Source: Verrucomicrobiia bacterium
Lineage (GTDB): Bacteria > Verrucomicrobiota > Verrucomicrobiia > Limisphaerales > CAIMTB01
Length of the DNA: 64,000 nucleotides
NCBI GenBank assembly: GCA_019634625.1
Contig: JAHCBA010000027.1
Span: 1 to 64,000, forward strand
Direction: 5' to 3'
Below the pieces are notes generated by a model. It was given only the letters and a program-made list of their open reading frames with translations, was not told the DNA's origin and did no database searches. Below, one piece after another: positions 51,318-53,817 of the stretch. The position numbers and the translations under genes were made by a program. Position 1 is the stretch's first letter, and each line of letters starts with the position of its first letter.

Positions 51318-51461
51318 GAGTCAATAAAATGAACCTGACTTATTAATCAGGGGAGCGAGTACGGAGATCAAAAGTCAATGCAATGAACCTGGCTTATTAT
51401 TTGAGAAACGGCGTCAACAAACTAAACCTGGAGTCAACAAATCAAACCGGGCTTAATAACT
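51318..51461. repeat. Cluster of AT-rich dispersed elements (no transposase nearby)
   Basis: Four degenerate units, starting near 51320 (GTCAATAAAATGAACCTGAC), 51374 (GTCAATGCAATGAACCTGGC), 51413 (GTCAACAAACTAAACCTGG) and 51433 (GTCAACAAATCAAACCGGGC). Irregular spacing (54, 39 and 20 bp) shows they are separate insertions rather than a simple tandem array. They fill most of the 301-bp gap before the SPFH gene. Confidence 0.7.
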
Positions 51462-51534
51462 ATGGGGCGTCCTTTTTTCTGGAGAGTTTTCCGCAACTCC
51501 CCTATCCGCTGGGACATCATCCATCCGGGCAGCC

Positions 51535-52617
51535 ATGAGCATCCTCAAATTTCTGCGGTCACAGGCGTGGGAGATCATTCAGTGGGAGGAGAACGACGTC
51601 CGGGACACCCTAAGCTTCCGATGGCCGGACGAGGATCGGGAGATCAAGCGAGGGGCGCAGTTGATCGTGCGGGAGAGCCAGATGGTGCAGTTCGTGTACC
51701 TCGGGCAGTACGGCGACCTGCTGGGGCCCGGGAAGCATTCGCTGACCACCGACAACATTCCGATCCTCTCGCGGCTCAAGGGCTGGAAGTACGGCTTCGA
51801 GAGCCCGTTCAAGGCGGATGTGTACTACATCGTCACCCGCCTGTTTTCGGGAAACAAGTGGGGGACCTCGAACCCGATCATGATGCGGGACAAGGACTTT
51901 GGGGTCGTGCGGGTGCGGGCGTACGGCACCTTCGATTTCCGGATCGTGAATCCGCCGGTTTTTCTGCGGGAAGTGGCGGGAACAGACCATCAGTTCCGGC
52001 TGGACGAGTTTCACGACACGATGCGGTCCCGGATTGTGAGTGTTTTCAGCGACGCAGTGGCCAGTGCGCAGATTCCGGTGCTGGACCTTGCGACCCGGTA
52101 CCAGGAGGTGGGCGAAGCGATCCTGCCGCTGATCAATCCGCAGACGTCCGCGAAGTACGGCATCGAGATCACGAGTTTCATCCTGGAGAACGCCTCCGTG
52201 CCACCGGAGGTGGAGGCGGCCATCGACAAGCGATCGAGCATGTCGGTGGTGGGCGACCTGAACGACTACGTGAAGTTCCAGATGGCCCAGGGCATGGAGA
52301 AGGGGGAGGGCAGCACCGGGAGTGCGGCGGCGCAATTGGGCATTGGACTGGCCATGGCCCAACAGATGGCCCAGCAGTTTGCCCAACCGGCCGGCACGCC
52401 GGCCGCGGCCGCGGCCCCGGCCGCGGCGGTTGGGGTTGGGGCGGCGGCCGCACCGCAGTCGCCACGGCTCTATTCGCCGGAGGAGGTGGCCCAGGCGCTG
52501 GGCGTTACGGAGGCCGATGTGCTATCGACATTGGAATCGGGGGAATTGAAGGGGCGCCGGATCGGGAGTGCGTGGCGCGTATCGCAGGCGGCGCTGGACG
52601 AATTCCTGGCCCACTGA
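51535..52617 (+). CDS. SPFH-domain protein with C-terminal excisionase-type HTH
   Basis: 360 residues. The N-terminal SPFH/virion-core-like part (about 1-255) resembles B. subtilis YdjI: MSILKFLRSQAWEIIQWEEN, GPGKHSLTTDNIPI, and VVRVRAYGTFDFRI. An Ala/Pro/Gln-rich linker follows (265-305). The last 50 residues form an excisionase/MerR-like helix-turn-helix (LYSPEEVAQALGVTEADVLS, then GELKGRRIGSAWRVSQAALD). This domain usually binds DNA, which is unusual for a membrane-associated SPFH protein; a peptide-binding use is possible. The zinc-ribbon partner starts 63 bp downstream. Confidence 0.85.
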   Translation: MSILKFLRSQAWEIIQWEENDVRDTLSFRWPDEDREIKRGAQLIVRESQMVQFVYLGQYGDLLGPGKHSLTTDNIPILSRLKGWKYGFESPFKADVYYIVTRLFSGNKWGTSNPIMMRDKDFGVVRVRAYGTFDFRIVNPPVFLREVAGTDHQFRLDEFHDTMRSRIVSVFSDAVASAQIPVLDLATRYQEVGEAILPLINPQTSAKYGIEITSFILENASVPPEVEAAIDKRSSMSVVGDLNDYVKFQMAQGMEKGEGSTGSAAAQLGIGLAMAQQMAQQFAQPAGTPAAAAAPAAAVGVGAAAAPQSPRLYSPEEVAQALGVTEADVLSTLESGELKGRRIGSAWRVSQAALDEFLAH

Positions 52618-52680
52618 GGAGTTCCGGAACGGTGAGGAAGGGTCGGAATTGGGTGGACGGTGCGGGGCCGGGGTTTCGGC

Positions 52681-53817
52681 ATGGCGCCCGCCCCCGGCAA
52701 TGAGGCCTTGGATCGCGTCATGTCCGACTTCCAATCGATTCAGAAATACGCCTGCCCCGCATGCGGGGCCGATGCCCGGTGGGACGCGGGGCGCCAATTG
52801 CTGGTTTGTCCGTACTGCAGCACCGTTTCCCCGGCGCGCCTCGGGGCGGACGGGCAATGGGTTGGGGAGAACGACCTGGTCGAGGCCCTGCGTCAATTGA
52901 CTCCGGACCAGCGCGGTTGGCAGGCCTCCACCAAGTCGGTCCAATGCCGGAACTGCCACGCCATTTCCGTCTTCGAAGCGCGGCGCGTTGCGCAGCGCTG
53001 CGATTTCTGCGGGTCCCCGTCGATCGTGGCGGTGGAGGCGCAGCGAGCGCCGATCCGGCCCAGCGGGGTGCTGCCGTTCCAGGTGCCGGTGGATGCGGTG
53101 CGGGAACAGATGCGCGTCTGGTATGCCTCGCGCTGGTTTGCGCCCAACCGGCTTCGATCCCGGGCCCTGACCGACACCGTCCATGGCGTGTACCTGCCCT
53201 ACTGGACCTTCGACGCCCAGGTGATGGCCCGGTGGTCGGCGGAGGCGGGGCATTACTATTACGAGACGCAGACCTACCGGGACGCCAACGGGAACCGGCA
53301 GACGCGGCAGGTGCGGCGGATTCGGTGGGTGCCCAGTTCCGGGCGGCTGAGCCACTTTTTCGATGACGAGCCAGTGCCTGCGACCAAGGGGGTGCGGACG
53401 GATCTGCTGCGGGGCATCGAGCCGTTTCCGACGAAGACGGAGTTGAAGCCGTATGACGCGGGATATCTGGCGGGCTGGGTGGTGGAGCAGTACCAGATCG
53501 ACCTGGTGGCGGCGGCCAGGAAGGCGCGGGAGGCGATGGACGCGAAGGCCCGCGGGTTATGTGCGGCCCAGGTTCCCGGGGACACCCATCGGAACCTGCG
53601 GGTGCAGGCGGACTATTCCTCGCAGACCTTCAAGCACCTTCTCGTGCCGGTCTGGCTGTTGAATTACCAGTTCGGGCGCACCACGTATCAGGTCCTGGTC
53701 AACGGCTCGACGGGCAGGATTGCCGGGGACCGTCCCTACAGTTGGGTGAAGATCGTCCTGACGATCCTGGCGGTGGGAGTGCTTGCGGTGTTGGCAGCGG
53801 CCCTCGTTCAGCGGTAG
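52681..53817 (+). CDS. Zinc-ribbon membrane protein (YdjG-like partner of SPFH protein)
   Basis: 378 residues from MAPAPGNEALDRVM; a GTG 21 nt upstream is a possible start. Two zinc ribbons are seen: CPACGADARW with CPYC, and CRNCHAIS with CDFCGSPS. The middle part has repeated aromatic beta-sheet sequence (YLPYWTFDAQVMARW), and there is one C-terminal membrane segment (IVLTILAVGVLAVLAAALV). Gene order with the SPFH protein recalls the B. subtilis ydjF-I stress locus, but no PspA homologue is present here. Function in membrane stress is inference. Confidence 0.82.
   Translation: MAPAPGNEALDRVMSDFQSIQKYACPACGADARWDAGRQLLVCPYCSTVSPARLGADGQWVGENDLVEALRQLTPDQRGWQASTKSVQCRNCHAISVFEARRVAQRCDFCGSPSIVAVEAQRAPIRPSGVLPFQVPVDAVREQMRVWYASRWFAPNRLRSRALTDTVHGVYLPYWTFDAQVMARWSAEAGHYYYETQTYRDANGNRQTRQVRRIRWVPSSGRLSHFFDDEPVPATKGVRTDLLRGIEPFPTKTELKPYDAGYLAGWVVEQYQIDLVAAARKAREAMDAKARGLCAAQVPGDTHRNLRVQADYSSQTFKHLLVPVWLLNYQFGRTTYQVLVNGSTGRIAGDRPYSWVKIVLTILAVGVLAVLAAALVQR

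What the first reader, a model, noticed from the sequence alone, without database searches (positions are those of the whole stretch)
51535..53817. SPFH protein fused to an excisionase-type HTH, paired with a zinc-ribbon membrane protein
The SPFH part matches the YdjI-like group, but the C terminus is a MerR/excisionase-like helix-turn-helix instead of the usual zinc-ribbon or GYF-like end. With its zinc-ribbon partner and no PspA gene nearby this is an unusual combination, perhaps linking membrane state to DNA or to another protein.
Basis: partly seen in the sequence, partly recalled or inferred. Interest (0 to 1): 0.55.

Follow-up and report, generated by a model that had tools for sequence, protein, structure and literature searches.

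The report
Scaffold protein with repurposed DNA-binding fold
A bacterial membrane-scaffold protein of a known family ends in a small domain shaped like a DNA-binding switch; the fusion turns out to be widespread, and the domain seems to have lost the residues used to grip DNA, so it probably grips another protein instead.

Summary
Window 51535-52617 encodes a 360-aa YdjI-like SPFH protein (PF13421, 268 bits) whose residues 312-359 match HTH_17/excisionase models above curated cut-offs and are predicted as a MerR/BldC-type winged HTH. It is followed by a two-zinc-ribbon, single-TM protein. The genome's only PspA match lies on another contig.

The fusion is not rare: the 80 best relatives carry it, as do 32 of 209 YdjI-like proteins typed from three phylum samples, in one clade. 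NCBI already names one 'SPFH and helix-turn-helix domain-containing protein'. The partner is encoded in 14 of 14 HTH-type genomes of the 288-genome sample and in 33 of 34 genomes reached through loci.

The DNA reading is unlikely: the recognition helix has net charge -2 to -4 in all rows examined, and the position of BldC Arg30, whose alanine mutant hardly binds DNA, is Ala or Ser in 94 of 97 rows. Best reading: a protein-docking module in the slot that GYF_2, zinc-ribbon or SHOCT domains fill in sister proteins. What it docks is unknown. A widespread variant of a known family.

The parts
51535..52617 (+). SPFH-HTH protein, 360 aa: SPFH/Band_7_1 (aa 28-237), helices and low-complexity linker (aa ~240-310), MerR/excisionase-type winged HTH (aa 312-359)
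52462..52614 (+). C-terminal HTH_17 domain with acidic recognition helix (E326, D328, E334) and basic wing (R341, R342, R348)
52720..53817 (+). Membrane partner, 365 aa: two 4-Cys zinc ribbons (C12/15/30/33, C76/79/94/97), long-stranded beta domain, C-terminal TM-like helix (aa 342-364); start chosen by comparison with relatives
51318..51466 (+). Direct-repeat array upstream: GTCAAnnAAnnnAACCnGG at 51413 and 51433 (exact), 51320 and 51374 (1 mismatch); role unknown, motif not found upstream of 93 other HTH-type loci

Best explanation
This is a YdjI-like SPFH scaffold working with a YdjG-like zinc-ribbon membrane protein. SPFH subunits are taken to assemble at the inner face of the membrane (inferred from the fold and from B. 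subtilis YdjI), held there by the membrane partner. The C-terminal tail presents a small exchangeable interaction domain to the cytosol. In most of the family that domain is GYF_2, a zinc ribbon or SHOCT; in this clade it is a MerR/excisionase-fold HTH that has lost its DNA-contact side chains and docks a protein (the membrane partner, a client, or a neighbouring subunit). Shown by computation: domains, predicted fold, single clade in the samples, loss of contact residues, co-occurrence with the partner. Inferred: oligomerisation, membrane recruitment, protein docking. Not known: what the HTH binds.
For: Domain and fold. Same slot held by GYF_2, DZR zinc ribbons or SHOCT in sister proteins (Pfam on 8 examples; pattern-based typing of 209 proteins). 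HTH type one side of a branch: 33 rows, 100* in FastTree and in IQ-TREE quick. Recognition helix net charge -2..-4 in 97 of 97 rows (near-duplicates included) and 32 of 32 of the samples (13 of these are also among the 97); Asp at the D328 position in every one. BldC contact side chains K26, T27, T29, R30, W31, K33 (PMC5859096, passages; register through) fall on mostly A, D, hydrophobic, A/S, S/T, E. In one search the R30 position is Ala in 72 and Ser in 22 of 97; R30A essentially abrogated BldC binding to DNA. Partner in 14 of 14 HTH-type genomes of the 288-genome sample and in 33 of 34 genomes reached through loci, 31 of which did not show it in the stretch fetched around the gene. Precedent for a MerR fold turned protein-binder: CbpM on the CbpA J-domain (PMC4063869, passages). 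YdjI needs YdjG and YdjH for membrane foci (PMC8581546, passages).
Against: In B. subtilis the two-hybrid link to YdjI was with YdjH (and PspA); YdjG was seen to bind YdjH. This genome has no YdjH-type TPM match, so direct binding of SPFH protein and zinc-ribbon partner has to be assumed. The wing keeps basic residues (K/R341 and 342 nearly invariant, R348 invariant in A1), so nucleic-acid contact through the wing is not excluded. Nothing shows what the HTH binds. The partner's cytosolic part is not basic (mean net charge -3.2 over residues 1-112 in 49 HTH-type rows, though less acidic than -7.9 in 8 rows of other types), so charge complementarity is at best weak. The partner also goes with GYF_2-type proteins (44 of 74 stretches), so it need not be what the HTH binds. 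One genome of 34 lacked the partner (G322). SPFH model confidence is moderate (mean pLDDT 72.6).
Confidence: 0.6

Rival explanations
1. The HTH does bind DNA: the scaffold ties the chromosome, or its own promoter, to the membrane, in the way RacA anchors DNA (RacA role recalled).
For: HTH_17 and excise scores above cut-offs; among the 50 PDB rows shown the one match to that part is DNA-bound BldC, 6ama_B, E 0.018, TMt 0.77, rmsd 1.9; nearest solved sequence by profile is phage Gp37, E 0.0085, an excisionase as I recall; conserved basic wing; a four-copy direct repeat lies just upstream in this genome, with both exact copies of the motif in the 6.7 Mb genome, and BldC binds direct repeats.
Against: Acidic recognition helix in all rows examined and loss of the BldC side-chain contacts; the repeat motif was not found, with one mismatch allowed, in up to 300 bases upstream of 93 other HTH-type genes, which keep the same HTH.
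Confidence: 0.13
2. The HTH is a subunit clasp: HTHs of neighbouring subunits pack head to tail (as BldC does on DNA) and close the SPFH ring, with no outside client. In sister proteins GYF_2 would do the same by gripping the PPPxP motif of a neighbour.
For: 74 of 74 GYF_2-type proteins carry a PPPxP motif in the last 150 residues, against 0 of 30 SHOCT, 2 of 65 zinc-ribbon and 9 of 32 HTH types. BldC multimers are head to tail.
Against: BldC interface residues Trp31, Arg22 and Glu16 map to Thr332, Gly323 and Glu317 (the last is Gln in the A1 consensus), so that interface is only partly kept (register as above). No multimer prediction could be run.
Confidence: 0.2
3. The HTH is a passive folded cap with no binding partner, kept for stability of the tail.
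For: None direct; no partner identified.
Against: Strong conservation of helix positions expected to be exposed (E326, D328; exposure not computed) and no loss or swap within the sampled clade.
Confidence: 0.07

Closest known systems
B. subtilis YdjI (SPFH protein of the pspA-ydjGHI operon; PMC8581546, passages)
   Same: Band_7_1 SPFH (the PF13421 control search rings in B. subtilis); encoded with a two-zinc-ribbon TM protein
   Different: YdjI ends in a zinc ribbon (PMC11237479, passages, where it is called YdjL); here an HTH; no linked pspA; no TPM/YdjH match in the genome at E 0.01
'SPFH and helix-turn-helix domain-containing protein' WP_224153175.1, Comamonas odontotermitis plasmid
   Same: 62.4% identity over 99% of the query; next gene is a TFIIB-type zinc ribbon-containing protein
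   Different: Pseudomonadota, on a plasmid record; an automatic name, no function given
BldC (MerR-like, PDB 6ama)
   Same: Winged-HTH fold of the C-terminal domain
   Different: BldC is free-standing and binds DNA; its helix contact residues are replaced here
CbpM (PMC4063869, passages)
   Same: Works-like precedent: MerR-type fold without the DNA residues, binding a protein
   Different: Free-standing coiled-coil dimer; no SPFH part; no sequence comparison run here

Membership tests
YdjI-like SPFH (PF13421) | Band_7_1 domain above the curated cut-off | tested here: met
   268.1 bits, cut-off 24
YdjI-like SPFH (PF13421) | C-terminal zinc ribbon as in B. subtilis YdjI | tested here: not met
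   HTH_17 in its place; within PF13421 the end varies, so this bars 'YdjI ortholog', not the family
PspA-YdjGHI operon system | linked pspA | tested here: not met
   only PspA match on another contig
PspA-YdjGHI operon system | YdjH with TPM domain | tested here: not met
   no PF04536 match in the genome (96.98% complete) at E 0.01
YdjG-like membrane protein (partner) | two N-terminal zinc ribbons | tested here: met
   six Cys in 57 of 57 rows, C12 and C15 in 56 of 57 with one gap
YdjG-like membrane protein (partner) | TM segment | tested here: met
   hydrophobic C-terminal helix 342-364 in the model and sequence; no TM program run
YdjG-like membrane protein (partner) | NTF2-like domain related to YpeB | tested here: inconclusive
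   no PDB match at E 0.001; second look Z at most 3.2; YdjG itself not compared
HTH_17/excisionase DNA-binding domain | sequence profile and winged-HTH fold | tested here: met
   87 of 87 members of A1 match PF12728
HTH_17/excisionase DNA-binding domain | DNA-contact residues on the recognition helix (as in BldC) | tested here: not met
HTH_17/excisionase DNA-binding domain | binds DNA | not testable with these tools
   needs EMSA or ChIP

The most novel reading that the evidence does not exclude
YdjI-type SPFH scaffolds carry a cassette slot at the C terminus into which unrelated small binding folds have been swapped; in one clade across three phyla the cassette is a DNA-binding fold stripped of DNA contacts and turned into a protein clasp or adaptor of a membrane-stress scaffold that works with a zinc-ribbon membrane anchor and without a linked PspA.
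Probability: 0.45. Interest if true: 0.55.

Novelty: new variant of a known kind. Interest (0 to 1): 0.4.

Why it matters
It would be a clear case of a DNA-binding fold re-used for a protein contact inside a membrane scaffold, in a family where four unrelated folds occupy the same position. That makes the open question of what YdjI-type SPFH proteins hold or recruit testable by swapping tails. It also warns that automatic 'helix-turn-helix' labels on SPFH proteins do not imply DNA binding.

Tried and rejected
A sigma54-type promoter (GG-N10-GC block seen by eye upstream in the window and two of three near relatives): scored over 94 HTH-type upstream regions, mean best score 14.5 against 14.4 in local shuffles, so not a general feature. 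The upstream repeat array as an operator read by the HTH: motif not found upstream of 93 other HTH-type genes, no repeats in three near relatives. Charge complementarity between HTH and the partner's cytosolic part: not supported (only 8 rows stood in for the other types). A conserved third gene: in 81 HTH-type loci, beyond the five largest clusters, which hold the two genes and, as I judge from the sequences shown, their other-frame shadows, no cluster recurred in more than 9 loci. Fold of the partner's middle domain: no clear PDB match. Mobile-element reading: 20 plasmid records match the SPFH protein, one of them over most of its length; one phage record matches, at 29.7% and without the HTH region. 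Literature searches with SPFH plus YdjI/PspA, helix-turn-helix/zinc ribbon, YdjG, excisionase, GYF_2, Verrucomicrobi, and 'SPFH domain-containing protein'/helix-turn-helix and phage shock protein/Band-7/SHOCT listed no paper whose title or passages seen describe this fusion; PMC7159879, listed twice, holds SPFH and Band-7 only in its references, and PMC10936438 was seen in passages; PMC6524685 was not opened.

Rows dropped: window's phylum, 69 of 71 matches typed (the window's own match counted apart, one fragment, G286, not fetched); second phylum 53 of 53; third phylum 87 of 94 (seven rows, mostly fragments, not fetched). Controls: 10 of 16 ordinary HTH_17 hits used; the other six were matched by the profile only in part or not at all. 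In the IQ-TREE run 67 of the non-HTH rows were drawn at random after 12 long rows were left out. Tail typing other than HTH is by simple patterns and is approximate: L134, typed 'other', is SHOCT by Pfam. The helix count misregistered two rows; one search corrects it.

Full report
What is there. The ORF at 51535-52617 gives a 360-residue protein with a Band_7_1 SPFH domain (residues 28-237) and, at residues 312-359, an HTH_17/excisionase domain that passes the curated cut-offs of Pfam and NCBIfam. AlphaFold2 gives the C-terminal domain with pLDDT near 90 and the order helix, helix, two strands, helix. Among the 50 PDB rows shown by Foldseek, 49 are SPFH-type or vault matches and one, rank 50, is DNA-bound BldC over 52 columns (6ama_B, TM 0.77 by target length, rmsd 1.9, 29% identity). 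The next gene, best started at ATG 52720, encodes two four-cysteine zinc ribbons, a well-predicted domain of very long strands and a C-terminal hydrophobic helix. The genome's only PspA match lies on another contig and there is no TPM (YdjH-type) match.

How common. The best 80 of 462 relatives in species genomes all match over the HTH as well; ranking by similarity to the query favours that. A view not tied to the HTH comes from PF13421 searches: 66 of 288 genomes of the window's phylum, 53 of 398 of a second phylum, reached through a genome titled Lysobacter terrigena, and 92 of 199 of a third, reached through a MAG titled Acidobacteria. Of the 69, 53 and 87 proteins typed, 13, 4 and 15 end in this HTH. 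Nearly all others end in GYF_2, zinc ribbons or SHOCT by simple patterns (8 unassigned), which Pfam bears out on eight examples. On trees of the SPFH part alone the 33 HTH rows, window included, are one side of a fully supported branch, so one origin fits the sample; weak support around it leaves the sister group open. The HTH itself is a distinct subfamily: in the window's phylum 14 hits score 95-105 bits, each at the end of a PF13421 protein, and the next best is 46.6. NCBI's annotation already uses the name 'SPFH and helix-turn-helix domain-containing protein' for a Comamonas relative, next to a 'TFIIB-type zinc ribbon-containing protein'.

The pair. In the 288-genome sample the partner is found in 39 genomes, 37 of which have a PF13421 protein (table 37, 29, 2, 220; Fisher p 4e-26, kinship not corrected), and in 14 of 14 genomes with the HTH form. 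Of 80 HTH-type loci from species genomes 49 show the partner in the fetched stretch. For the 31 that do not (two of them end within 600 bases of the gene, others are short), plus three that do, the whole genomes were searched: 33 of 34 encode it and one, G322, does not. So the association largely survives loss of linkage.

Does the HTH bind DNA? Probably not. The 12-residue recognition-helix stretch has net charge -2 to -4 in all 97 rows (near-duplicates included) and in all 32 rows of the three samples, with Asp at the same place in every one; ten ordinary HTH_17 domains of the same genome and genus have 0 to +4. Read against BldC (contacts from PMC5859096, passages; register through the Gp37 and BldC alignments), the six side-chain contacts of the helix are replaced; the Arg30 position is Ala or Ser in 94 of 97 rows, and R30A in BldC essentially abrogated DNA binding. 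Against this, the wing keeps basic residues. A published precedent exists: CbpM has a MerR-type fold, lacks the DNA residues and binds a J-domain (PMC4063869, passages).

How it likely works. By the YdjI model (PMC8581546, passages), the SPFH protein is recruited to the membrane by integral partners, YdjG and YdjH, and is needed for PspA foci; there the two-hybrid contact of YdjI with a membrane protein was with YdjH, and YdjG bound YdjH. Ravi and colleagues (PMC11237479, passages) describe the B. subtilis pair as band-7 plus zinc ribbon, and two zinc ribbons plus a YpeB-related domain and TM. The present pair has the same plan with the tail exchanged and YdjH missing, so direct contact of the two proteins is an assumption. 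I take the tail to be a docking module. One pattern hints at what such tails do: each of 74 GYF_2-type proteins carries a PPPxP motif in its own tail, a likely GYF ligand (recalled), against 0 of 30 SHOCT, 2 of 65 zinc-ribbon and 9 of 32 HTH types. This would fit clasps between subunits, and keeps the subunit-clasp rival alive for the HTH form.

Verdict. Observation confirmed, rarity refuted, protein-docking outlet favoured over the DNA outlet. It is a widespread variant of a known family; no paper describing the fusion appeared in the searches listed (with passages).

Noticed in passing
window 51318-51466: Four-copy direct repeat upstream of the SPFH gene; both exact copies of the motif in the 6.7 Mb genome lie here, plus two of the fifteen one-mismatch hits. 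Not found within 300 bases upstream of 93 other HTH-type genes.
   Followed up: partly
window 51477-51509; L040 5943-5970; L041 980-1015; L042 5943-5970: Block around TTTTyTGG..GAG.TT..yGCAACTCCCCTAT shared upstream of the gene in the window and its three nearest relatives, with GG-N10-GC spacing in three of four; possibly a promoter, not general in the family.
   Followed up: partly
GYF_2-type loci such as L010, L012, L033: All 74 proteins typed GYF_2 carry a PPPxP motif in the same tail, hinting at GYF-to-neighbour clasping.
   Followed up: partly
L095:2169-4339: Two partner-type zinc-ribbon genes in tandem downstream of the SPFH-HTH gene.
   Followed up: no
genome G217: Has a strong partner match but no PF13421 match at 1e-10 in the same sample: an orphan partner or a gap in the assembly.
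   Followed up: no
model mb17363bf0ec8, partner residues 155-318: Three predicted strands of 28-33 residues at high confidence without a clear PDB match; the domain was not searched alone.
   Followed up: partly
L043, L058, L059, L073, L075: MAG records titled Betaproteobacteria, Deltaproteobacteria or Bifidobacterium breve carry the protein at 66-69% identity to the window; labels or binning may be wrong for some.
   Followed up: no
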